From contig NZ_QPMJ01000002.1 of the NCBI RefSeq assembly GCF_003369835.1, positions 496,001 through 560,000 of the forward strand: DNA of 64,000 nt, read 5' to 3'. Made by a program: the position numbers and the translations under genes. This DNA is from Halorussus rarus (GTDB lineage: Archaea; Halobacteriota; Halobacteria; Halobacteriales; Haladaptataceae). The notes beneath the pieces were generated by a model. The model was given only the letters and a program-made list of their open reading frames with translations. It ran no database searches and was not told the origin of the DNA. The stretch's first letter is position 1. Every line of letters begins with the position of its first letter. This document shows, piece by piece, positions 5,976 through 30,397 of the stretch.

Positions 5976-8900
5976 CTACGCGGTCAAGTCGACGTTCGTG
6001 AACTCGAAGCGGGCGCCGCCGGCCTCGCTCTCGGTCACCGCGCAGTTCCACTCGTACACGTCGGCGAGCCGCCGCACGAACGCCAGCCCGAGTCCGGTCC
6101 CCCCGCTATCGGCGGCCGTGGTGAACCCCTCGTCGAAGACCTCGTTCCGGGTCTCGCCGGAGATACCCGTGCCGTCGTCGGCCACGTAGAACCCGTCGGG
6201 GAGGTCGCCGACCGTGACCGTGACGTCGCGCCCGCCGTGTTCGACCGCGTTCTCGAGGAGGTTCCGCAACAGGTGGCGGACGTACGTCTCGTCCGCGCGT
6301 ATCGTCGCGTCGGTCGCCGGTTCGAGCGTCGCCTCGGGCGCGTCCACCTCGGCCCACGCCTCGCCGGCGGTGTCCGCGAGTCCGACCGGGCTACGCCTGT
6401 CGACCGCCTCCCGGCCTCGCGTCAGCACCAGCATGACGTCGACGATGTTCTCGATGCGGTCGAACGCCTCGCGCACGTAGTCGACCGACTCGACGTCGGT
6501 CTCGGCCGGGAGCTGCTGACTGTATATCTGGCCGACGTTGACGGGGTTGCGCAGCTCGTGGGCCAGCATGCTGGCGAAGTTCTCCAGCCTGTCGTTCTTG
6601 TCCTGGAGCTGGGTTTCGCGGTGGTTGCGCTCGAGTTCGTAGCTCACGCACTGGCCCATCAGTTCGAGGAACGTCTGCTCGGCGTCGGTGAACGAAACCC
6701 CCCGCGGCGACAGGTCCGTGAAGCAGATGGTGCCGTAGGCCTCGCCGCCGACGGTCAGCTGTACCCCGGCGTAACATTCGAGGTCGAACTGGTGATACAG
6801 TGCATCGCCGTCCCAACCGGCGGCCCCGGCGTCGGCCACGCTGACCGGGTCGCCCGTCTCGACGACTCGCCGGCAGTAGTTGTCCGTCATCGGCGGCGTG
6901 AGCGACCCCTCGCCGAGTTCGGGGTGCGAGCCGTGCATCTTCACGATCTCGAACGCCTCGTCTCGGTTTCGGGTCAGCATCCCGACGGACAGGTCGAGGT
7001 GGTCGCACCCCAGCTCCAGTAACTGCTCGAACTTCTCGTCGGTCGACAGCTCGTTGTCGGCGATTATCTCGTACAGCTCGCGCTGGGACTGCTTGTGTTC
7101 CCGCCGCTCGAGTTCGTAGCTCACCCACTGGCCCATCAGCTCGATGAACGTCCGTTCGGCGTCGGAGAACCGCCGGTCGCGGGGCTCGGTGCTCCCGAAC
7201 CAGAGCGTCCCGTACGGCGTGGACCCGCTCGTGACCTTGGTGCCGAGGTAGCTCGTCAGGCCGAAGTCCCGATGGATCACGTCGTCCTCCCAGTCGGTCT
7301 CGCGGACGTCCGACATCCTGACCGGCGCGTCGGCGGTGATGGTCTCCCGGCAGAAACAGCCGTAGCCGGGGTCGGTCCACAGTTCCTCGTCCGGGTCGAC
7401 GCCGAGGCCGATTCCCATCTCCAGGCGGAACTCGCCGTCCCACGACGGCAGGTGGTTCAGCCCCGCCATCTCGAGGCCGAACTGCTCGCGCCCGAGTTCG
7501 AGCAACCGCTCGAGTTTGTCCTCGAACGACACGTCCGGGTCGGACGTGATCTGGTAGCACTCCCGGAGGAACTCCTCGCGCTGACGGCGGTTGAGCTCGT
7601 AGCCGACCCACTGGCCCATCAGCTCGATGAACGTCCGTTCGGCGTCGGAGAACTGCCGGTCGCGGGGCTCGGTGCTCCCGAACCAGAGCGTCCCGTACGG
7701 CGTTCCCCCGCCGGAGACCGTCGTGCCGAGGTAGCTCGTCACCCCGAGTTCCTCGTAGATCCGGTCGTCCTCCCAGTCGGTCCCGCGGACGTCCGCCACT
7801 CCGACCGGCTCGTCCGCCGCGACCGCCTGCCGACAGTACGCCCCGTCACCCGGGTCGGTGATCAGCGGTTCGTCGTCGGAATCCCCGCCGAGGCCGACCC
7901 CATTCTCCAGGCGGAACTCGCCGTCCCACGACGGCAGGTGGTGGAGTCCGGCCATGTCGAGGCCGAACCGGTCGCACCCGAGGTCGAGCAGGTGTTCGAC
8001 CTTCTCCTCGAACGAGCTCTCGGGGTCCGACGTGATCTCGTAGCACTCCCGGAGGAACTCCTCGCGCTTGCGGCGGTTCAGTTCGTAGCCGACCCACTGG
8101 CCCATCAGTTCGAGGTACGTCCGGTCCTCCTCGGTGAACGACGCCTCTCGGGACTCGGTGGAGACGAACGCGAACGTCCGGTCCGCACCGCCGTCGACCG
8201 GGATGTACGTCCCCAGATACCCCGGGATGCCGAACTCCTCGTAGACCAGAACGTCGTCGAACCCCTCCTCGGCCGGGTCCGACAGGCACGCGGCGTCCTT
8301 GATGTCGGCGGCCGCTCGACAGTACGTCTCCGACAGCGGGAGCTCGACGCCGGGCTCGAAGTGGTCGTGGTCGCCGCTGACGTACTCGACTTCCAGCCGG
8401 TCGGCGTCGGGGTCGACGCGGTTCAGGGCACCCAGCCCGAGGTCGAACCGATCGCAGCCGAGGTCGAACAGTGCCTGGAGCTTCTCCTCGAACGAGAGGT
8501 CCCGACTGGCCGTGATCCGGTTCAGTTCGCGGAGGAACCGCCTGTGTTCGGTCAGGGTCGTCTTCGCCTCGGTTCGCTCCCGGATCGTCCCGAGCATCCG
8601 GTCGACCTCGCCGGCCGGGTCGTCGGCGCCGAAGAACTCCGCGGGCGGCGTGTAGTAGAAGTTGTGACACGCCGCCCCGTCGTAGATGAGATGCGGGTGG
8701 GTCTCGACGACGTCCCGGATGACCTCCGGCGGGAACCCGGTTCGGTCGAACTGGCAGATGGCGAGGCACTCCTCGTCGGCGAAGAGCTCGTTCACCTTCG
8801 CCTCGTACTCCATGAACTGCTCGACCGTGCAGGCGTCGTCCTGCAGCCACGTCGTCTCGGCGACGATGCGGAGCGCCTCGTACTCCTCGGTGGCGGCCGC

Positions 8901-12574: not shown

Positions 12575-13459
12575 TCACAATGATTTGATATGTGCCGACC
12601 AAGGGATAGAATCAACGTGAGAACTTATCTCGATTTCTGCCTCCCAGAGCGGTTCCGTCTCTTTGTCTCCGTCCTTAAAATCATAGCTGTAGCACAGTTC
12701 GATGACTTCACGGGAGTAGTCTTCGGCAATCTGTTCAGGTATTTCCAGATTCGGCTGAGAGAATTTGAAAACCACATTCTCTTCGCCCGGATGTAGGTAG
12801 TCCCCCCGACCTGTATATCCATTATACTCATCCCCATATCGCTTCGCCCGTCTACGTCCGATTATCCTTCCATCGTCTCTGATTCGGATAACGCCTTTAA
12901 TATCCTCTGCAGGGGCATCCCCTATATTGGAAAGCTTGAAATCAAGATCTCCATCGGGATAGATATGAGAATCTTCACAAGTGAGATAGGGGCGTTTTCC
13001 TGCTGGCCCTATTCTCTTATCGTCCCAACTATCGGTGATTGTCTTGTATACCTCTTCTGCGGCGGATTCTACGTCTTGAGGACCGTCCACAACGACTGCT
13101 CTAAGGTCGGATAGCGGCGCACTAAATTCTCGAACTGCTTCAGCCTCGACATCTAACCAGACTGGAATAATAACATCGTCTTCTTCATAGACATTCCTGC
13201 TCGTGAACCCACGAAGTTCTCTTTTCGTCCACTCTTTGTCAAAGAATGAGTCAGAGAGAACAACAACGCCCTTGCTAGACTTTGAGATTCCACTATCGAT
13301 TGACTGTTGTAAGCTACTTCCAGGGACTATCTCCCAATCATCAAGCCAAATCTGGAGTCCCCTTTGATGAAGGGATTCAGCTAGAGGTTTCACGAAATCA
13401 GCTTTGTTCTCACTAGAATGGCAGATGAAAGCATCGTATTCGGGATTCTCGTTCGCCAT
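12575..13459 (-). CDS. TIR-domain protein with a C-terminal beta-rich domain
   Basis: The protein has 294 residues from the ATG at 13459 (MANENPEYDAF). The frame extends upstream, but this start sits directly before the domain and has a TATA-like run about 28 bp upstream. Residues 7-145 form a TIR domain: YDAFICHSSENKADFV at the N-terminus, WLDDWEIVPG, then VVVLSDSFFDKEW. Glu81 in KRELRGF is at the position of the catalytic Glu of NAD-cleaving TIRs. Residues about 155-294 are probably beta-rich and match nothing I recognise; they may sense a trigger. Prokaryotic TIR proteins commonly act in phage defence by depleting NAD or making cyclic ADP-ribose signals. That role here is inferred from family and context. 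Confidence 0.85.
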   Translation of the reverse strand: MANENPEYDAFICHSSENKADFVKPLAESLHQRGLQIWLDDWEIVPGSSLQQSIDSGISKSSKGVVVLSDSFFDKEWTKRELRGFTSRNVYEEDDVIIPVWLDVEAEAVREFSAPLSDLRAVVVDGPQDVESAAEEVYKTITDSWDDKRIGPAGKRPYLTCEDSHIYPDGDLDFKLSNIGDAPAEDIKGVIRIRDDGRIIGRRRAKRYGDEYNGYTGRGDYLHPGEENVVFKFSQPNLEIPEQIAEDYSREVIELCYSYDFKDGDKETEPLWEAEIEISSHVDSIPWSAHIKSL

Positions 13460-13591
13460 CTCTACTACATCCTGTTTTCTGACAAATAATAAATACCCAG
13501 AACTGGCGTCTCTTAACGAGATAGGAATGGACTTTGAACCAGCTGGTAGAGTCCTCAAGAGTTACTTTGCCTTCTACGATACTATCACAAT

Positions 13592-14347
13592 ATGAGCGAG
13601 TACGTTGGTGTCGACTGGGCATCTAAGGGCTGGTTCGCTATCCATCTGTCTGAAACAAGTGAATCTGGAATGGGCTTCTATCCCTCGATTTTCAATCTTT
13701 GGCACCACCATAAGGATGCGGAGCGAATACTCATTGATATCCCTGTTGGGCTGTCTTCAAACAGGAAGCGAAAGTGCGATATCGAAGCCAAGGAAGTTCT
13801 CGGCACAGTAAGAGGTAATAGCGTGTTTTATACTCCCACACGCAAGGGCGTCGGAGCACAGAATATCAAGGAGGCAAAACAAGCCCAAGAAAATCTGGAC
13901 TTCAGCGTACAGAATCAAGCATGGGCTATCGTTCCTCGAATCCAAGAAGTAGACGAGTTCTTAGAGATGTTCAGAGAAGAGATAGGCAACACAGATATCA
14001 GGGAAACTCATCCCGAGATTTGCTTTTGGGCTCTCAACGATGGAGAACCCATGACGTACGGGAAGAAGACAGAGGAAGGAATTGAAGAGCGACTCGGCTT
14101 ACTCTCGAACCATCTTACTGATGCCCGTGGTCTCTATGAGGATGCTGTGGAGACGTTCACAGAGCCCGAGTGGGCTCCAGTAATCGGGAAAAGTGGACGG
14201 GATGATATTTTGGATGCGATGGTCGCAGCACTCACCGCCAGGGAGTGCGGAGAGAATCCATCTCGGCTTCCGAAAAAGTCCGACCCGGGATACGATGATG
14301 TCCGGGGACGAGAGATGGAGATGGTGTTTTGGCCTGATATCGACTAG
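13592..14347 (+). CDS. DUF429 family protein (predicted RNase H-like nuclease fold)
   Basis: The protein has 251 residues. It opens with YVGVDWASKGWFAI, has an acidic strand LIDIPVGL at about residues 48-55 and RETHPEICFW at about 138-147, and near the C-terminus DDILDAMVAALTA. These are the conserved blocks of DUF429, which is predicted to have an RNase H-like fold with Asp/Glu metal ligands. Biochemical activity is unproven for the family. The gene is divergent from the TIR gene (132 bp between starts), and its stop codon overlaps the stop of the convergent gene at 14344. Confidence 0.8.
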   Translation: MSEYVGVDWASKGWFAIHLSETSESGMGFYPSIFNLWHHHKDAERILIDIPVGLSSNRKRKCDIEAKEVLGTVRGNSVFYTPTRKGVGAQNIKEAKQAQENLDFSVQNQAWAIVPRIQEVDEFLEMFREEIGNTDIRETHPEICFWALNDGEPMTYGKKTEEGIEERLGLLSNHLTDARGLYEDAVETFTEPEWAPVIGKSGRDDILDAMVAALTARECGENPSRLPKKSDPGYDDVRGREMEMVFWPDID

Positions 14348-15060
14348 CTTGGGAGACTCCGTTCTCGTGCGCTTTTGGGACACTCTCGTACCTGTTCGAG
14401 GTCATGCTGGTCCTCGATATTCCCGGCTAAGGTGAGTAATTCTCTTCCTCGTAGTTCAAGCCATGTCGTCCCGAGGTGACTCCGCTCCGCCTCAGTTGCA
14501 GGTATCCAATAACAGTCCCCGATGAATTCTTTGCTCCCCTTAGACGTGAACGCGAATGCTGTCGCCTCTTCCGGTATTGAGGTCAACGCCTCCTGAGCAG
14601 CAATTAGATACTTGGTCCCCAATGCGACGAAGACCAAGTCGTAACCTTCGGCAAATATTTGCCTGAGGTCTTGAGGGATATTCTTTTCCCGACTGACGGC
14701 GGCTACCAACTCGTTGTTGGTCATTTCCTCTATGTCTAGTCCGAATCTCTCCGCTCGTTCCCGAACCTGCTCGATTTCGTTAAACGTGCATTCGTAGGAG
14801 GGAATGTCTGTACCGGACGAGAGCACCCCCAAACCGGCGGAGATGATACGCCAATCGACATCGGCGAACTTTGAAAGCCGCTCTACGGCAGACTGGATGT
14901 GTCCGTGTTCTCTCCCTGTGTACATCTCAGCCGCCGAAGCGACAGATTCGGAGAACTCCTCATTCAATGCTTCCCTCGACTTCTCGTCAACCCGTCTACA
15001 GTCAGCTACCGCGTCATATTGCTTACTTCCGGAGCAAGGTGACACGACAAGGATATCCAT
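14344..15060 (-). CDS. YaaA/DUF6884-like protein
   Basis: The protein has 238 residues from the ATG at 15060 (MDILVVSPCSGSKQYDA). The N-terminal PCSGSK, the MYTGREHG segment and the WRIISAGLGVLS strand-turn are typical of the DUF6884 group, which is related to YaaA peroxide-stress proteins. Function in archaea is unknown. An in-frame upstream start exists but would overlap the neighbouring divergent promoter. It shares its stop region (CTAG) with DUF429, so the two genes converge with a 4-bp overlap. Family assignment is moderately sure. Confidence 0.6.
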   Translation of the reverse strand: MDILVVSPCSGSKQYDAVADCRRVDEKSREALNEEFSESVASAAEMYTGREHGHIQSAVERLSKFADVDWRIISAGLGVLSSGTDIPSYECTFNEIEQVRERAERFGLDIEEMTNNELVAAVSREKNIPQDLRQIFAEGYDLVFVALGTKYLIAAQEALTSIPEEATAFAFTSKGSKEFIGDCYWIPATEAERSHLGTTWLELRGRELLTLAGNIEDQHDLEQVRECPKSARERSLPS

Positions 15061-15132
15061 GATTTCAGTTGCTACCGGGTGAATTGTACATCCTACGGTT
15101 TCTTGAAGATTCACCAGAACATTCAGCTACAT

Positions 15133-16791
15133 ATGGACTTTCGCGCTCTCCCTGATTTCCCGCGATTCAATCTCGGGGTGAGTCTGTTTATTGGGCTACT
15201 GTCATCCGGTCTCTTGTTAATTCTTCCTGCCGACTCCCTCTCATCGTTGTTCCAAGTATTAGCACTCGCACAGGCATCCCTGTTAGCGATTATCGTCTCT
15301 GTCGGCCTATTGAGTGTTCAAATCGCTGCTAACCAGTTCACTCCCCTAATTGGACGACGCTTCGAAGAAGACGAATTCCTCACGAGTACGATTCTACGTT
15401 TCGGAGCCTCAATCGCTCTTGCTCTGATTGCTATGCTTCTCATCCCTGAATTGTACCCACTCACGGGACGACTCCCATTATTCGGACTTGTTCTGCTCAT
15501 CGCTGCTGGAGCCGGTGGTGCGACGTTCAGTTTCCTTTCGGTTATTGAGGTCAAGGATGACATGCTCAATTATCTGAACCCTGAATCGCTACTCGATGAT
15601 TTGCTTGAGGACGTGTCTTTTGAAGCGTATCGGCGTTTTTCCGAAGAATTGCAAGAGAACGGTCCCACCGCCCGGAGCCCTGTATTAGAGATTTTCCAGA
15701 TTGGTCAACGGGCATTCGAGGATAACGATAATCACACGGCGATATATACGATCCACACGTTGAACAAGGCTAGCCAGAAGATATTGACCGAATATGGTGA
15801 ACTCAGCGAAGAGGAACGTCTAGAGGTTAGCTTTCATCAGCGGGACCTATTCGACTACTGGAAGCGGCTCATCGACTCTGCCGTCGAGAAAGGGACTGAC
15901 AAAACGCTTTATCAGATTGTACTCAGTCAAAAGGAGATAGCAACAGTAGCCGCAGAAAATCGATTGTCAAGGGTGGGCGGTGAAGCAGCGAAAACACTCC
16001 AGTACCTTTGTGAGCAAGCGTATCAGCGAGATCGACTGGAGAAAGGCTACTACGCACGATTCAAGCATATCCTCGAAGCCAGCATCAAACACGACGTTCC
16101 AGGGATTGCCAACTCGACGGTTATCTACATGAAATCGTTTGCCTTCACCATCACTCGGGATTTTGAGCCCGAGGGCGAACACCGAAGTTGGGAGGAAAAC
16201 ATCGTTGACAACCTATTTGCGTACCTTCGAGACACTTGGTCGAAGGTGTTTGAGGAAAAGAGCGGCCAGATTAAGGATGGAGAGTATCGCGACCTTCACG
16301 ACAGATTTGAGAAATCTGTCGGTCATTATGTTTCTACCTGCTGGGCGTTCGACCGTCCATATCCCTCGAATTTAGAATCAGACTTGACCTCCGTAGCAAT
16401 CTCGGCAGCAGAAAATGACGAACAGTGGGCCGTCTCGCGCATTACTCGAATGCTCATTGAGCTGTGGGTTATCACCGAGCGCCGAGATAGTCGACGAATT
16501 AACGGCTTGGCGAGGATAATCGATTCTGGAGGTCGTAAAGGTGTTGAGGATGCATTCGACCATATTCTGTCCTACGAGCACGTAGATCCGGATGATATGG
16601 GAGAACCGGTAGTTATTGGGGAAGATGACTGGGAAGAGAAAATGGAACAGCAGAGTTCGAAAATGTATGACAACGTCGTCGAGGGCATTGGTCGGCTGAA
16701 TTCAGTACCGGACTTCAGAGAGCACGTAGTTGGGCTTAGAGAACAGATGGAAACCCGCTATAACGACTATTTCGCTGATTCAGATACGTAG
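15133..16791 (+). CDS. DUF2254-like membrane protein
   Basis: The protein has 552 residues from the ATG at 15133 (MDFRALPDFP). Four hydrophobic helices lie in the first about 150 residues (for example SLFIGLLSSGLLLILPA). The stretch LLSVQIAANQFTPLIGRRF resembles the DUF2254 membrane core. The remaining about 400 residues are soluble and mostly helical. The DUF2254 match is by eye. It is divergent from the YaaA-like gene. Function unknown; in this setting a membrane-associated defence component is possible but unproven. Confidence 0.7.
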   Translation: MDFRALPDFPRFNLGVSLFIGLLSSGLLLILPADSLSSLFQVLALAQASLLAIIVSVGLLSVQIAANQFTPLIGRRFEEDEFLTSTILRFGASIALALIAMLLIPELYPLTGRLPLFGLVLLIAAGAGGATFSFLSVIEVKDDMLNYLNPESLLDDLLEDVSFEAYRRFSEELQENGPTARSPVLEIFQIGQRAFEDNDNHTAIYTIHTLNKASQKILTEYGELSEEERLEVSFHQRDLFDYWKRLIDSAVEKGTDKTLYQIVLSQKEIATVAAENRLSRVGGEAAKTLQYLCEQAYQRDRLEKGYYARFKHILEASIKHDVPGIANSTVIYMKSFAFTITRDFEPEGEHRSWEENIVDNLFAYLRDTWSKVFEEKSGQIKDGEYRDLHDRFEKSVGHYVSTCWAFDRPYPSNLESDLTSVAISAAENDEQWAVSRITRMLIELWVITERRDSRRINGLARIIDSGGRKGVEDAFDHILSYEHVDPDDMGEPVVIGEDDWEEKMEQQSSKMYDNVVEGIGRLNSVPDFREHVVGLREQMETRYNDYFADSDT

Positions 16792-16859: not shown

Positions 16860-17570
16860 ATGGAACGTCAACACGATATCGACCGATTGTACCAGTTACT
16901 CCAAAAGGTTGAGGAGACAGTCGGCAGGAAACAGAAGCTCAAGAACTGCACCGGCTACATGGACTGGCCAGACCGTGGCGTCTACATATTCTTCGCTCCG
17001 GACGAATACCGAGAATCGCGCGACCAACGTCGGATTACTCGTATCGGAACTCACGCTGTTTCTGAGGGAAGCAGTACAACGCTCTGGAACCGACTCAGAA
17101 CGCACCGGGGAGCACAACGCGGAACCTACGAAGGCGGCGGGAACCACCGAGGCTCTGTCTTCCGGAAACGGGTTGGCGAGGCATTTGTCGAACGCGACGA
17201 CAGACATGATGAGTATCCGTATTGGGGCGAGGGATCGAGTGCAAAGCGCGAACGTCGACTCGATGAACTTGAGATGGAGCAGCGAGTAAGCGACTATCTC
17301 CGGGACCTGCCGTTCCTCTGGCTGAACGTCGACGACGAACCAAGCGCCGAGAGCCAACGGGCCTATATCGAACGAAATTCGATTGCACTCCTCAGCAACT
17401 ACCAGCGAGAGGCTGTTGATGCTCGCTCAGACGATTGGCTCGGACAACATAGCCAGAGCAAGAAAATCAACGAATCCGGGCTGTGGAATGTGGACCACGT
17501 GGATGAAGACTACGACCCCAAATTCCTTGAGCAACTCCAAGACCAGATAGAGGAAACTTCGCCCATCTGA
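16860..17570 (+). CDS. GIY-YIG nuclease-like protein
   Basis: The protein has 236 residues. GVYIFF (residues 40-45) and RIGTHAV (61-67) mimic the two short strands of the GIY-YIG fold. LWNRLRTHRG follows with its Arg/His helix, then GNHRGSVFRKRVG, and a late Glu in YIERNSIALL. The C-terminal block GLWNVDHVDEDYDPKFLE is shared by a group of such proteins. The fold call rests on motif order. The next gene, 61 bp downstream on the same strand, is a DUF262-HNH protein, so the two may form a DNA-cleaving pair. Confidence 0.65.
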   Translation: MERQHDIDRLYQLLQKVEETVGRKQKLKNCTGYMDWPDRGVYIFFAPDEYRESRDQRRITRIGTHAVSEGSSTTLWNRLRTHRGAQRGTYEGGGNHRGSVFRKRVGEAFVERDDRHDEYPYWGEGSSAKRERRLDELEMEQRVSDYLRDLPFLWLNVDDEPSAESQRAYIERNSIALLSNYQREAVDARSDDWLGQHSQSKKINESGLWNVDHVDEDYDPKFLEQLQDQIEETSPI

Positions 17571-17631: not shown

Positions 17632-19020
17632 ATGGCTATCTATGTCGACGACCCTCTCAATGCGAGTGACGAAGACTGGGACATAAGTAAGTTCCACAGT
17701 GATAGCGAATACTTCGTCAAGCGGCCACCCTACCAGCGAAAAAGTGTCTGGGACACGCAGAAACAGAAGGAACTAATCGATAGCTTTGTTCGCCAACTCT
17801 ACGTCCCGCCCGTCGTCATCCGCCAAGTTGTTCTCGACGGCAACGATCTCCGTTTAGAAGTGGTCGACGGCCAACAGCGAATCACCGCGATTCAAGAATT
17901 CTTCGAGGACGAATTCGCACTCCCCGATAGCGCGGAACTCCGCGAACTCAACCCGGAGCATGAGATTGCTGGGAAACGATACTCCGAACTTAGCGAGGAT
18001 GTCCAGGAGTATATCGACTCTCAGTGTTCGCTCAAGGTCATCAAGCTGCGCGGAATCGATGACCCCGATGATAAGCGCCACCAAGAGTTAGCGACCAAGG
18101 TCTTCTGGCGGCTCCAGCAGGGAGAACACCTAACCAACATTGAGAAGAATCACAGCAAGACCTACAGCCCCGTTCGGAACTTCATCGTCCAAACCGCCGA
18201 CGACATCAGTTTTGACCGAGAGAACTACGAGAGTCGTGACGACAATCCGAATCGCCACGAGTTCTTCACGCTCCTCGCTCGGAACAACGATCGACTCCAG
18301 CAACTCTCACTTCTCGCTCGCTTCATCCTGATTGAGATTGATGAAGGCCCGACGAAGGTAACCGGGAAAGAGGTCACCAAACTATTCGACTGTAAGCGTG
18401 AGGGATTCACCGTTCACGAGGACCTAGAGGAATTCAAGCAACGCGACGAGATTCAGCGCGTTCAGCGGATGCTCGACCTCCTTACGGAACTCTATCGCGA
18501 TACCGACCTCAAGAACTCGAACGGAGAGATAGAGTTTCTGAACAAGGAGTACTTCATCCTCAGCCTGTACTCGCTTATCCGCGAGTTGGAGTTTGAAGAC
18601 TACAACTTTGGGCGAGACAACTACGACGAAGTCCGGAATTTCACCGAAGAGTGGTTCAAGCGGTTCGAAATCGAGGATACAGACGACAGCGAAATGCTCC
18701 AATTCAAGGAAGCCCGCCAGCAGAACCGGGGAGCGGTCAACAAGCGACACTACATCCTCGAAAACGCGTTCTGGGAGACGGAGCCCGATATTCAAGAGAC
18801 CGACAGTCAACGGGCATTCTCCCGAGCGCAGCGAATTAAGCTCTTCATCGAGAGTGATCGCATCTGCGAGATGTGCTTAGAGGAAGGGAAAACCGAAGAG
18901 GAGGCGAAAGTTTCGTGGAGCAATTGGGACGCTGACCACATCGAGGAGCATTCACAGGGCGGCCAGACTGTTCTCGAAAACGCACGGGTACTTTGCCCTC
19001 ATCACAATCGGAGCCGATAG
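17632..19020 (+). CDS. DUF262-HNH endonuclease (GmrSD/type IV restriction-like)
   Basis: The protein has 462 residues. The N-terminal DUF262 domain (ParB/sulfiredoxin-like NTPase) shows PPYQRKSVW and VVDGQQRITAIQ at residues 77-88, the family's nucleotide-binding motif. The C-terminus is an HNH nuclease: CEMC, then WDADHIEEHSQGG, then CPHHNRSR, with both Cys pairs and the catalytic His. This is the architecture of GmrSD-like type IV restriction proteins that cut modified DNA, though a single chain usually also carries DUF1524. Here a true HNH with zinc Cys replaces it. Start chosen by the TATA spacing. Confidence 0.85.
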   Translation: MAIYVDDPLNASDEDWDISKFHSDSEYFVKRPPYQRKSVWDTQKQKELIDSFVRQLYVPPVVIRQVVLDGNDLRLEVVDGQQRITAIQEFFEDEFALPDSAELRELNPEHEIAGKRYSELSEDVQEYIDSQCSLKVIKLRGIDDPDDKRHQELATKVFWRLQQGEHLTNIEKNHSKTYSPVRNFIVQTADDISFDRENYESRDDNPNRHEFFTLLARNNDRLQQLSLLARFILIEIDEGPTKVTGKEVTKLFDCKREGFTVHEDLEEFKQRDEIQRVQRMLDLLTELYRDTDLKNSNGEIEFLNKEYFILSLYSLIRELEFEDYNFGRDNYDEVRNFTEEWFKRFEIEDTDDSEMLQFKEARQQNRGAVNKRHYILENAFWETEPDIQETDSQRAFSRAQRIKLFIESDRICEMCLEEGKTEEEAKVSWSNWDADHIEEHSQGGQTVLENARVLCPHHNRSR

Positions 19021-26722: not shown

Positions 26723-27565
26723 TTATGTAAAATCATCTAGCGAAGAATCTCCACTGGACAGATCGTCTACTACTTCCTGGAATTTTCGTTCAAGCGCCTT
26801 GCTGCTATTCACGTAATATTTCCGTCGATCAAGCTTTTCCATATGCCCATCAACGTCCTTTTGCTCAAAGAGGTCGAGAATGTCCTCGGCTTTGCGTTTT
26901 AGCTCCTCTTGCTCACCGGAGCTTATCTGTTCCCAGCTATCAAACGCACTTTCGAGCAGGTCTTCAACCCCAATATCCACTTCTCGATTTCTCCCTTTTG
27001 CTGCGAGATGTGTTAATTCTTGGGCTAGAAAGACTGCAATTCTTGCTCGGCTATCTTCAGCTGAGAAGGGATGGTACACGTTAGGAGGTCGCATTGCTGG
27101 AAGCCTCCCTTTTGAGATATTCTGATTCAGATTGTCATCATCAAAGTCGTTTAAACGACGGTAACGGTCTCCTTCGATGACTATCGCAGGAGAGTCAGTT
27201 CCATTAGCGTTGATTGAATCTTCTGTTTCCGTATCCCCAACAAACAGAACTTCATTCGATAATTGGTTCACATCTAGATTTTCGATACTAGTACGGAGGT
27301 CTGATGAACCAATGTCTGAGAGGTCCCGAAACACTTCATCTGGAATTGCCTCGCCTGAACAGTCCGCAACTAGCACATTCTGGGCAAAGTTAGAACCGAA
27401 TAACAGGTCGGGTATAACTTCGTTATCCTTTGAATTAACAAGTAGCGGACGAACAGACTGTAAATCATACCCAGCACTCTGCAAGAATGACGGCCAGTGG
27501 GGCATACTCTTGGTGAACCCAATACAGATATTGACAAATCGAGTTCGTTTAGATAAGTTGCTCAC
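26723..27565 (-). CDS. unknown protein, second gene of an overlapping pair
   Basis: The protein has 280 residues from a GTG at 27565 (VSNLSKRTRF). This start is favoured by a GGAGG 9 bp upstream and a 17-bp overlap with the previous gene, a sign of translational coupling. The frame is open further upstream, but there it only shadows the previous gene. The segment IPDLLFGSNFAQNVLVADCSG-like region (about residues 55-75) has the spacing of a PD-(D/E)xK nuclease core. Asp-Cys-Ser replaces the expected Glu-x-Lys, so if related it is probably inactive. The C-terminal half is charged and helical. No family named. Confidence 0.65.
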   Translation of the reverse strand: MSNLSKRTRFVNICIGFTKSMPHWPSFLQSAGYDLQSVRPLLVNSKDNEVIPDLLFGSNFAQNVLVADCSGEAIPDEVFRDLSDIGSSDLRTSIENLDVNQLSNEVLFVGDTETEDSINANGTDSPAIVIEGDRYRRLNDFDDDNLNQNISKGRLPAMRPPNVYHPFSAEDSRARIAVFLAQELTHLAAKGRNREVDIGVEDLLESAFDSWEQISSGEQEELKRKAEDILDLFEQKDVDGHMEKLDRRKYYVNSSKALERKFQEVVDDLSSGDSSLDDFT

Positions 27566-28667
27566 TATCTTCCCCCTCCAAAGTGGATTTTGAATCGTAG
27601 TAATGCTGGATATTCGTATATAGCCTGAGAACGACATTCCCGCAGCTTCCTTTGGGTAAGTAGATACGCATCCAGTCAGGACAGACCTCAAAATCAATCT
27701 TATCCCCGGTATGCATATCAACTCCGGCAATTGTATAGTAGTCTTCTTCCATTTCGTCCACAACGCCCCAGAGACGGAAGGGATTTGTAGAGGAGAACAA
27801 CTCATCAACGAACTCTCTAAGATTTTCTATCCGGCGGTTGAAATCAATCAAGAGCGGATGGCCATCAATGTGAGTTCCACTTCCCCTCTGCTCAGTATAC
27901 ATACTGTACTCGTTTTCAACTTTGTCCAATATGTTATAGTACTTATCCATCACGTCGCGGACTTGGCTAAAGTGACCTTCAACTGATTCCCCTCTCGCAG
28001 TAAATTTCGACTGGTATGTAATGTCGCTCAACAGAACGCGCTCTCCATACTCTTTTTTAATCCCGACGTTAGAAAGAGAAGTAGACCCACTAATATTCTC
28101 GTTCGTTCTTAGCGTATCCAAAACTTCATCGGCACTATTCCCCCACAAACGCATAGAGAGACCCTCAACTCCACCTTTATTATCCATTATGTCGTGGAAT
28201 TCATCTTCGAATTTAACAGAGAATGCCCGGAAAGTCGCCTCTGGTTGCTTACCCACATCCTCAAGGAACCCATTCGAGAGCCAAGGGTAGTCTAATTCCG
28301 TAAATCGGGGGAAGATTATCCGTTTGATTATCTTGTCACTTACTGTCGCCTTCGCAATCGTATGGATAGACCAGAATCGGTCGTTCAGTTTATCGATGAA
28401 AAAGTAAACTCGCCCGTCGTCAGTTTGGGCGCTTGCACGTACAAATCCTCTCTCTTGAGTATCTGAAATGTACAATTGCTGGTCTCCAAGAGAGACTTGT
28501 CCCTCAGTAAATGCGTCTCTGTTCGATTCAATCAAATATGACTTCAAATACGTCTGTCCATCGTCCAGCTCCTGATTTTCAGCAATAGAATCGTATGATT
28601 CGACCATCCGCTCTCGGAGTACTTCTTTTAATTCCCGTCTGGTATCGATGTACTCGAAAGCGGGCAC
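27549..28667 (-). CDS. unknown protein, first gene of an overlapping pair
   Basis: The protein has 372 residues from a GTG at 28667. It is soluble and mixed alpha/beta. The N-terminus is helical (RRELKEVLRERMVESYDSI). Later there is a coiled-coil-like stretch (HFSQVRDVMDKYYNILDKVE) and a beta-rich C-terminus (DYYTIAGVDMHTGDKIDFEV). I recognise no family or catalytic motif. A TATA-like AGTTTTAAGAG lies about 31 bp upstream, giving a leaderless transcript that also covers the next gene. Its start faces away from the pentapeptide-channel gene across 119 bp. Confidence 0.7.
   Translation of the reverse strand: MPAFEYIDTRRELKEVLRERMVESYDSIAENQELDDGQTYLKSYLIESNRDAFTEGQVSLGDQQLYISDTQERGFVRASAQTDDGRVYFFIDKLNDRFWSIHTIAKATVSDKIIKRIIFPRFTELDYPWLSNGFLEDVGKQPEATFRAFSVKFEDEFHDIMDNKGGVEGLSMRLWGNSADEVLDTLRTNENISGSTSLSNVGIKKEYGERVLLSDITYQSKFTARGESVEGHFSQVRDVMDKYYNILDKVENEYSMYTEQRGSGTHIDGHPLLIDFNRRIENLREFVDELFSSTNPFRLWGVVDEMEEDYYTIAGVDMHTGDKIDFEVCPDWMRIYLPKGSCGNVVLRLYTNIQHYYDSKSTLEGEDSEQLI
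27575..27579 (-). promoter_or_regulatory. ribosome binding site for the overlapping downstream gene
   Basis: GGAGG on the minus strand lies 9 bp before the GTG at 27565 and inside the upstream coding region. It supports this start and coupled translation of the pair. Confidence 0.6.
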
Positions 28668-28786
28668 GATAAAGTAGACTTCTTGGCACTGTCTCTTAAA
28701 ACTTCATACGTAGATTTGGCAAACCGGCTGACGACGGCTGTAGAAAGATATGTAAAGGCGTGATGAGGTGTTTTGTCCGTCCCCGT

Positions 28787-30397
28787 ATGACAAGCACTCA
28801 GTGTCAGTATCAATTTACTTGGTCAGACGAGAAAGAACAAGCTTTCAGCCAGTATGGGGACATAGAGCGGAACGGAGGAACTGGAACATCTGCTCAGGTA
28901 GTTGGCGTAATTGACAATCAGCGAATTCTAGAACATACCTGTTCCCGAGAAGCGGAAGAGGGGAAGGACCTCTGTATCTGGCACAGTAAGCGCAAAAATA
29001 AGACTACAGATGAACTTAGGGGGACACTTTCGGAGAATGAGGAAACAGTCTGTGAGCCATATCTAAGCGATGCTACGCTTGAAAACCTTGATTTCTCTGA
29101 ACACACGATTATATGGGGTAGATTTGAAGGTGCAAATTTAACTCGAGTTGACTTGTCGTTCACCACCCTTTGTTTATCTAATTTTGACGATGCAACCCTC
29201 AAGGAGGTGAATTTCACAGGAACAAACCTCTCAGGCACCCGTTTTGTCGATACAACATTCAAAAAACCCAGCTCTGGAAATCAGAATACCACGTTTTCAG
29301 ACACAAACTGTGCCGGTACCAACTTCATTGATGCCGATTTCAATACACCACCTATATTCGAAGGAACCGAATTTGACCGTTCAACTCAATTATGCAGGAA
29401 TCTAATCGATGCGAAGTTAAATAATGCAGACCTGAGTGAGACAGAGTTCACAGACTTGACCCTCACAGGGGCTAATCTGAAAGAGGCAAACCTCTCTAGT
29501 GCAGATATAGAGGCAGATTTCACTAATGCCGATTTAAGTAATATCTACGCGTTCGATGCAGACCTGAGCAATTCGAAGCTTGAACGTACTGTGCTTGATG
29601 GAGCGAACCTCCAAAGTGCGGATTTGCGAGGAGCAAAAATTCATTCCGCCGTGATTTCAGACGCCGTTATTGACCACGATACGAAATTTGACAGAATATC
29701 TCCTTACGAAGAAGCAGCGAGAAATAAGAAGAATTTAGATTCTAAAATAGAGCACCTCAACCGAGCGATTTGGTCGTATAACTCCCTCTCAAGATTGAGC
29801 AAAGCGAATGCGCTCTCAAAACAAGCACAGCAGTACTATATAAAAGAAAAAGACTTGAAACGAAAGCTCAGCTGGTTGAAGCTGTGTGGTCCTACATCAT
29901 CCGGTTCCAACGAACAGATGGGAATATTAACAACAAAAATTAGTCAATTTCAGAATCTTCTTTCAACCTCGAACACGCCCAACAAGCGATTTAGAATACG
30001 GTTTATGGGCCAAGTCAGACTGTTACTCAAGTCAGTCAAAGCAGAAATCTCTCGCTGTACCATCAAATACGGTGAAGGTCACTGGAATGTTTTGTTCTCA
30101 TTGTGCGTCGTGACATTACTTTATTCGTTTATTTACCCGATATGGGGTATTCAACAGGGAGATAAGGTTTTGAAATACTCTGTAACTCTGAATAGCATAC
30201 TGTCCAGGGATATTTATATTGACTGGGAAATCTGGGTCAATAGCATATATTTCAGCGTGGTCACTTTCACTACCCTCGGATACGGTGATGTCCAACCGGT
30301 CGGGTTTGCAAAATACGTTGCCGCCAGTGAGGCTGTTATTGGAGCTTCGCTAATGGCACTTCTCGTGTTTGTTCTAGGGCGTAGAGCAACTTGGTAA
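28787..30397 (+). CDS. pentapeptide-repeat protein fused to a potassium-channel pore
   Basis: The protein has 536 residues from the ATG at 28787. The N-terminus has a putative metal knuckle (HTCSREAEEGKDLCIWH). Residues about 85-300 are pentapeptide repeats (A(D/N)LxxxDL type, for example TGANLKEANLSSADIE), folding as a right-handed square helix. A helical linker follows. The C-terminal about 100 residues are a two-helix ion channel with selectivity filter TLGYGDV (GYGD at 498-501). This makes a cytosolic sensor coupled to a potassium pore. Haloarchaea have such proteins; their trigger is unknown. It is divergent from the overlapping gene pair and lies at the right end of the island. Confidence 0.85.
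   Translation: MTSTQCQYQFTWSDEKEQAFSQYGDIERNGGTGTSAQVVGVIDNQRILEHTCSREAEEGKDLCIWHSKRKNKTTDELRGTLSENEETVCEPYLSDATLENLDFSEHTIIWGRFEGANLTRVDLSFTTLCLSNFDDATLKEVNFTGTNLSGTRFVDTTFKKPSSGNQNTTFSDTNCAGTNFIDADFNTPPIFEGTEFDRSTQLCRNLIDAKLNNADLSETEFTDLTLTGANLKEANLSSADIEADFTNADLSNIYAFDADLSNSKLERTVLDGANLQSADLRGAKIHSAVISDAVIDHDTKFDRISPYEEAARNKKNLDSKIEHLNRAIWSYNSLSRLSKANALSKQAQQYYIKEKDLKRKLSWLKLCGPTSSGSNEQMGILTTKISQFQNLLSTSNTPNKRFRIRFMGQVRLLLKSVKAEISRCTIKYGEGHWNVLFSLCVVTLLYSFIYPIWGIQQGDKVLKYSVTLNSILSRDIYIDWEIWVNSIYFSVVTFTTLGYGDVQPVGFAKYVAASEAVIGASLMALLVFVLGRRATW

What the first reader, a model, noticed from the sequence alone, without database searches (positions are those of the whole stretch)
26723..30397. 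Candidate three-gene module: overlapping unknown pair and divergent pentapeptide channel
Two unknown genes overlap by 17 bp with a strong ribosome site for the second. They share a 119-bp divergent promoter region with a pentapeptide-repeat potassium-channel protein. The second unknown has a degenerate PD-(D/E)xK-like core. A sensor-like pair and a pore effector would fit an abortive-infection or conflict system not described to my knowledge.
Basis: inference. Interest (0 to 1): 0.6.

Follow-up and report, generated by a model that had tools for sequence, protein, structure and literature searches.

The report
Sensor pair swaps nuclease for channel
In a salt-loving archaeon, a two-gene unit found across archaea and bacteria, whose second gene normally looks like a DNA-cutting enzyme that docks on the replication machinery, has lost its cutting site and instead sits back to back with a membrane-channel gene, which suggests a virus alarm that now acts on the membrane instead of cutting DNA.

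Summary
In detail: gene A (27549-28667, -), gene B (26723-27565, -; 17-bp overlap, GGAGGGGG ribosome site) and, divergent across 119 bp, a pentapeptide/two-TM channel gene C (28787-30397, +), in a 44% GC defence-type island inside a 70% GC genome. A-B is an uncharacterised two-gene family absent from Pfam, NCBIfam, PADLOC and PDB sequences, found in haloarchaea, methanogens, Thaumarchaeota, Bacilli, Actinobacteria and others, usually without C. B is a PD-(D/E)xK (RecB/NucS-like) nuclease with a sliding-clamp-binding tail (PIP-like in archaea, QLSLF-type in bacteria). All 40 canonical B proteins outside a methanogen subclade keep the catalytic lysine; all four B proteins beside the channel have lost it and the QxxxY helix. 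These four A-B-C units, in four genera, are monophyletic in all three gene trees, under purifying selection, without shared flanks. A's model weakly resembles RdgC/CENP-L/Iml3, the fold reported for lambda RexA, whose partner RexB is a membrane channel. Best reading: a replisome/DNA sensor whose nuclease effector was replaced by a channel. Anatomy, lysine loss and co-inheritance are shown; defence function, clamp binding and channel gating are inferred. The lysine/channel correlation is one clade, hence one event.

The parts
26723..27565 (-). Gene B: PD-(D/E)xK (RecB/NucS-like) nuclease fold (aa 1-150) plus helical C-terminal region and a C-terminal tail with an eroded clamp-binding motif (SSLDDFT); catalytic Lys and QxxxY helix lost (VADCSG...EVFRDL)
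27549..28667 (-). Gene A: conserved partner; aa 11-249 weakly RdgC/CENP-L/CENP-N/Iml3-like (the fold reported for RexA), aa 256-371 the most conserved domain (GVDxHxGD...CGNxxxR)
27549..27565 (-). 17-bp overlap of A stop and B start (translational coupling likely)
27570..27580 (-). Shine-Dalgarno-like GGAGGGGGAAG upstream of the B start (GTG at 27565)
   Evidence: read from the sequence
28668..28786 (.). Divergent intergenic/promoter region; two blocks conserved with the nearest relative (ACGTATGAAGxTTTAAGAGA on the A side; TACATAxxTTTCTACA, i.e. TGTAGAAAxxTATGTA on the + strand, on the C side)
28787..30397 (+). Gene C: Cys-rich N-terminus (C..C..CxWH), pentapeptide-repeat domain, linker helices and C-terminal two-TM channel with TLGYGD filter

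Best explanation
A-B is a mobile two-gene conflict module. A is most likely a DNA-binding sensor. B is a nuclease that docks on the replication sliding clamp through its C-terminal tail, so the pair would inspect replicating DNA. In most lineages B cuts when triggered. In this haloarchaeal lineage B has lost its catalytic site but is kept as a structural/sensing subunit, and the effector role has passed to the divergently encoded pentapeptide-repeat channel C, whose opening would dissipate ion gradients and stop the infected or plasmid-invaded cell: RexA-RexB logic with an effector swap. Shown: gene anatomy, conservation of the pair, nuclease fold and loss of its catalytic residues, clamp-type tail motifs, co-inheritance of C, purifying selection. 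Inferred: DNA sensing by A, actual clamp binding, channel gating by A-B, antiviral role.
For: Pair: B directly abuts A in all but one of the full-length A loci of the first set (overlap or gap of a few bp), and also in M. jannaschii, Bacilli, Enterococcus, Dehalococcoidia, Thaumarchaeota, Methanoperedens and, in reversed order, Actinobacteria. Nuclease: the AF2 model of B (pLDDT 86.0) matches PD-(D/E)xK enzymes throughout the list (BsmI Z 8.4, NucS/EndoMS Z 8.3 and 8.2, Can2 7.8). Lysine: present in 33 of 33 canonical rows and in 7 of 7 pairs found afterwards; absent in 4 of 4 channel-linked B (S, E, E, R), which also lost QxxxY. Clamp tail: bacterial motif in 8 of 10 B (0.02 expected; 0 of 249 control ORFs), archaeal PIP-like motif in the last 16 aa of 16 of 32 B (0.29 expected; 2 of 235 controls). 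Channel link: C homologue divergent at 86-129 bp in all four loci, found next to none of the others, including 7 of 7 new pairs; each gene's channel clade is supported (A 100/99, B 99/99, C 98/98). Selection, window vs L031: pS 0.78-0.85 but pN 0.063/0.175/0.289 for A/B/C. A: longest structural alignments (172-189 aa) are CENP-L, RdgC and Iml3 (Z 5.4-7.7); phage RdgC-like hit prob 0.99. RexA shares the RdgC/IML3 fold (PMC11077077); RexA is thought to sense phage replication intermediates and open the RexB channel (PMC12894663). Island holds TIR/ThsB-like, GmrSD-HNH, PDC-M57B, DpdC-like genes and an integrase.
Against: The channel/lysine-loss correlation is one clade, so one evolutionary event, with four members. 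The C filter is canonical in only two of four (TLGYGD in window and L031; ARTGIRE and PGNSGD in L032/L033), so K+ selectivity is not a conserved requirement. A methanogen subclade also lacks the canonical lysine position (ELT...SK) without any channel. Fold similarity of A to RdgC/CENP-L is weak (Z below 8, Foldseek E above 1e-3, low TM-scores), and the TBP- and Mediator-like matches of A's second domain score as high. The window's own clamp-type tail has lost the Gln (SSLDDFT). The channel family is widespread without A-B. No functional data exist.
Confidence: 0.5

Rival explanations
1. A-B is a DNA repair or replication-maintenance nuclease pair, NucS-like, carried on accessory DNA, and C is a divergent neighbour with its own ionic or osmotic role.
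For: NucS/EndoMS is among the best structural matches of B and NucS likewise uses a C-terminal PIP/clamp tail (PMC8228993); one methanogen pair lies beside SbcC/Mre11-like genes.
Against: Patchy distribution (24 of 391 haloarchaeal genomes), location on plasmids and islands, changing neighbours, and loss of the catalytic site under purifying selection argue against a repair enzyme; C is co-inherited with A-B over wide divergence.
Confidence: 0.13
2. The module belongs to the mobile element itself: a superinfection-exclusion or addiction device of a provirus or integrative plasmid, not a host defence.
For: A and B match full-length PHROG families of unknown function; L032 and L033 carry an integrase right after B; the window island has an integrase; other pairs sit on plasmids.
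Against: No match in 50,697 phage records; among IMG/VR contigs only one distant pair, from an Enterococcus contig, was found; L031 lies among housekeeping-type genes without a visible integrase.
Confidence: 0.17
3. B of the channel clade is still an active nuclease using other residues, and C is an additional second effector.
For: Lysine migration occurs in the PD-(D/E)xK superfamily (general knowledge) and may have happened in the methanogen subclade (ELT...SK); B is under purifying selection.
Against: The four B proteins have S, E, E and R at the lysine site, no shared replacement lysine, altered PD in two of them (TD, PE) and no QxxxY motif.
Confidence: 0.1
4. C sits next to A-B by shared transfer in an accessory island (hitch-hiking), without functional link.
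For: C-type channels are common in haloarchaea in unrelated contexts.
Against: Divergent layout kept at 86-129 bp in 4 of 4 loci while no other flanking gene is shared by the four; C tree matches the A-B clade; C proteins have diverged to about 30% identity without loss of linkage.
Confidence: 0.1

Closest known systems
RexA-RexB exclusion system (phage lambda and relatives)
   Same: Cytoplasmic partner with the RdgC/IML3-type fold (weak match for A) and a membrane channel partner; proposed to sense replication intermediates and open a channel (PMC11077077, PMC12894663).
   Different: No sequence match found; RexB has four predicted TM helices and no pentapeptide domain; Rex has no nuclease-fold, clamp-tailed third protein; here the channel is divergent, and it is absent from most A-B pairs.
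NucS/EndoMS mismatch endonuclease (archaea, Actinobacteria)
   Same: RecB-like PD-(D/E)xK domain plus a C-terminal PIP/beta-clamp motif, in archaea and Actinobacteria.
   Different: [quoted passage not shown] B has its nuclease domain first, then helices and tail, and is nearly always beside A. Window B lacks the catalytic lysine.
Haloarchaeal pentapeptide-repeat potassium-channel-family proteins
   Same: C has the same C..CxWH N-terminus, pentapeptide repeats, linker and two-TM channel; one family.
   Different: Relatives checked stand alone, mostly in core high-GC DNA; the A-B-linked ones form a separate clade, two of four with a broken selectivity filter.
Cyclic-oligonucleotide nucleases Can2/Card1/Cdn1
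   Same: PD-(D/E)xK nuclease domain among B's structural matches.
   Different: No CARF domain in B and no CRISPR/cyclase link seen next to the pair.

Membership tests
PD-(D/E)xK nuclease superfamily (B, fold) | alpha/beta endonuclease core | tested here: met
   AF2 model aa 1-150; nearly all listed matches are PD-(D/E)xK enzymes, Z up to 8.4
PD-(D/E)xK nuclease, active (window B) | catalytic PD...(D/E)xK lysine | tested here: not met
   S in window, E/E/R in the three sister loci; K in 33 of 33 canonical B rows and 7 of 7 later ones
RecB/Cas4-type subgroup (B family as a whole) | QxxxY motif after the ExK strand | tested here: met
   Q(x)2(R/K)Y in most canonical B, absent in the channel clade
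Sliding-clamp client | C-terminal PIP or QLSLF-type motif | tested here: met
   8 of 10 bacterial and 16 of 32 archaeal B, far above shuffles and control ORFs; window and L031 have lost the Gln. Binding itself not tested
RexAB system | A shares the RexA/RdgC/IML3 fold | tested here: inconclusive
   CENP-L Z 7.7 (188 aa aligned), RdgC Z 6.6 (189 aa), Iml3 Z 6.1; RexA itself not among the listed matches
RexAB system | RexB-type four-TM partner gene | tested here: not met
   C has at most two hydrophobic TM segments plus pentapeptide repeats
RexAB system | membrane permeabilisation and exclusion of phage | not testable with these tools
   needs experiment
NucS/EndoMS | N-terminal DNA-binding domain followed by C-terminal RecB-like nuclease | tested here: not met
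   B starts directly with the nuclease fold
K+ channel (C) | two-TM pore domain with TxGYGD filter | tested here: met
   Ion_trans_2 6.1e-13 and TLGYGD in the window; filter broken in L032 and L033
Any PADLOC-DB 2.0.0 defence system (A, B, C) | profile match | tested here: not met
   no hits for window A, B, C; none for canonical A, only E about 0.01 PDC-S26 for one B

The most novel reading that the evidence does not exclude
A replisome-docked, catalytically dead nuclease together with an RdgC/RexA-like DNA-sensing protein gates a potassium-channel-family protein: an archaeal system with RexAB-like logic that arose by effector replacement from an old nuclease module shared by archaea and bacteria. 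The same sensor pair would trigger DNA cutting in most lineages and membrane depolarisation in this one.
Probability: 0.35. Interest if true: 0.85.

Novelty: new variant of a known kind. Interest (0 to 1): 0.7.

Why it matters
If true, it is a natural example of a conflict system changing its killing mechanism from DNA cutting to membrane leakage while keeping its sensor, with the dead enzyme kept as a part. It also uncovers an uncharacterised nuclease pair, spread from methanogens to Actinobacteria and Bacilli, that appears to read replication directly through the sliding clamp, with the docking motif fitted to the host's clamp (PIP-like in archaea, QLSLF-type in bacteria). That makes the old question of what RexA-like sensors detect directly testable in a second, tractable setting.

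Tried and rejected
Pfam, NCBIfam and PADLOC gave nothing credible for A or B, window or canonical; profile searches of PDB sequences gave no relative. Phage records gave no relative of A or B; IMG/VR gave only one Enterococcus contig. An obligate three-gene system was rejected: most A-B pairs lack C, and no other third gene recurs next to them. Drift to a pseudogene was rejected for B: synonymous sites are saturated while nonsynonymous change is 17%. dN/dS itself could not be computed (dS saturated). My first archaeal tail pattern over the last 45 aa also caught an upstream helix and was replaced by the last-16-aa test; its first control still contained B genes and was redone without them. Only window A and B were folded; no canonical B, no complex. 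RexA does not appear among the structural matches listed for A.
Full report
What is there. The window lies in a haloarchaeal genome (G000:C2:496001-560000). A stretch of about 20 kb at 43-54% GC interrupts a 70% GC chromosome. At its right end lie gene B (26723-27565, -), gene A (27549-28667, -) and gene C (28787-30397, +). In the nearest relative (L031) two sequence blocks of the intergenic region are kept, one on each side, which fits two promoters. The same island carries a TIR/ThsB-like protein, a GmrSD/HNH protein, a PDC-M57B protein, a DpdC-like protein and a tyrosine integrase, so it is a defence-type mobile island.

A-B is an old two-gene family. A was found in 24 of 391 haloarchaeal genomes, on plasmids of M. 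jannaschii, Halobacterium, Metabacillus and Lysinibacillus, and in Methanoperedens, Thaumarchaeota, Dehalococcoidia, Actinobacteria and Enterococcus, with a distant subclade in methanogens and kin. B abuts A almost everywhere, with a short overlap or gap; in Actinobacteria the order is reversed. Neither family has a Pfam, NCBIfam or PADLOC model; each matches one PHROG of unknown function full length. Neighbouring genes change from locus to locus.

B is a clamp-docking nuclease in most lineages. The AF2 model of window B (pLDDT 86.0) has a PD-(D/E)xK core in residues 1-150: the listed matches are almost all enzymes of that superfamily, including BsmI (Z 8.4, 143 aligned, 4.1 A), NucS/EndoMS (8.3 and 8.2) and Can2 (7.8). 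Relatives have hPD-hhLxS-Hxhhh(D/E)CK(S/G)...QxxRY, a RecB/Cas4-type signature. B ends in a low-confidence, probably disordered tail with a sliding-clamp motif: QLSLF, QMDLF, QLDLL in bacteria (8 of 10; 0.02 expected by shuffling; 0 of 249 other ORFs), and QxxLxxF-like PIP boxes such as EQTSLDDFE and QSTLDDF in archaea (16 of 32 in the last 16 residues; 0.29 expected; 2 of 235 other ORFs). NucS uses the same arrangement of tail and clamp (PMC8228993). Clamp binding was not tested.

The channel goes with a dead nuclease. A C homologue is divergent to A in only four loci: the window, L031, L032 and L033, from four genera in two families. In these four, B has S, E, E and R in place of the catalytic lysine, and the QxxxY helix is gone. 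In all 33 other canonical B rows (some of them close relatives of each other) the lysine is present, from haloarchaea to Enterococcus. Seven pairs found afterwards served as an out-of-sample check: all seven lie outside the channel clade, all keep the lysine and a QxxxY-type motif, and none has C in the 1.5 kb flanks held. They confirm the negative side only; no new channel-clade member was found. The four are one clade in each gene tree (A 100/99, B 99/99, C 98/98), so this is one evolutionary event inherited by four lineages, not four events. No other gene in the flanks is shared by all four; L032 and L033 share an integrase. Between the window and L031 synonymous sites are saturated (pS 0.78-0.85) while nonsynonymous change is 0.063, 0.175 and 0.289 for A, B and C: dead B is kept by selection.

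An exception to note. In the methanogen subclade B reads ELT...SK instead of (D/E)xK, with the clamp tail kept and no channel. The lysine may have migrated. Loss of the canonical lysine therefore does not by itself imply a channel.

The channel. C has a Cys-rich N-terminus (CxWH), pentapeptide repeats, a linker and two hydrophobic segments. Relatives of C are widespread in haloarchaea: 121 of 391 genomes have a match at E up to 1e-10 to its pentapeptide and/or channel part. Those examined stand alone, mostly in core high-GC DNA. The filter is TLGYGD in the window and L031 but ARTGIRE and PGNSGD in L032 and L033, so strict K+ selectivity is not conserved.

A as sensor. The AF2 model of A (pLDDT 85.6) gave no significant Foldseek match in PDB. 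In the second look the longest alignments of residues 11-249 are CENP-L (Z 7.7, 188 aligned, 4.8 A), RdgC (Z 6.6, 189, 5.0 A) and Iml3 (Z 6.1, 180, 6.8 A); a phage RdgC-like protein is among the best viral matches by probability. These form one structural group, the one to which the lambda RexA crystal structure was assigned (PMC11077077). Z values under 8 may be chance arrangements, so I treat this as a lead. RexA is thought to sense phage replication intermediates and open the RexB channel (PMC12894663); that paper did not detect depolarisation by its P. putida RexB.

Best account. A-B watches replicating DNA, B docked on the clamp, A contacting DNA. In most lineages the output would be cleavage by B. 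In this lineage B is a dead subunit and the output has been taken over by C, recruited from a common haloarchaeal channel family. Confidence 0.5 for the whole chain, about 0.85 for the anatomy (pair, nuclease fold, lysine loss, co-inheritance of C).

Noticed in passing
L139-L151 (methanogens and kin): Distant A-B subclade in which B has ELT...SK in place of (D/E)xK, with a PIP-like tail and no channel; possible lysine migration.
   Followed up: partly
L140, after A at 7240-8343 (orientation of A): B appears split by a transposase-like ORF of about 370 aa.
   Followed up: no
L029 7956-8396; L030 8190-8438; L174; L175: Small haloarchaeal proteins, two of them on plasmids, that match only the C-terminal domain of A.
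   Followed up: no
window 12575-13558 (-): TIR protein, best PADLOC matches PDC-S66 and ThsB, with a C-terminal part of its own.
   Followed up: no
window 16860-17570 (+) and 14344-15114 (-): PDC-M57B candidate defence protein (E 2e-78) and a DpdC/DUF6884-like protein in the same island.
   Followed up: no
window 17632-19020 (+): GmrSD_N (DUF262) plus HNH protein; PADLOC matches NsnA and PD-T4-2_A.
   Followed up: no
window 15079-16791 (+); L026 10302-11960: DUF2254-type membrane protein in the window island, and another directly after the A-B pair on a Halobacterium hubeiense plasmid.
   Followed up: no
L040/L057 (Halorubrum sp. CSM-61): A carries an internal TAG stop while B is intact.
   Followed up: no
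L062-L067 (Actinobacteria): Gene order is B then A, with the clamp motif about 25-35 residues before an acidic C-terminus.
   Followed up: partly
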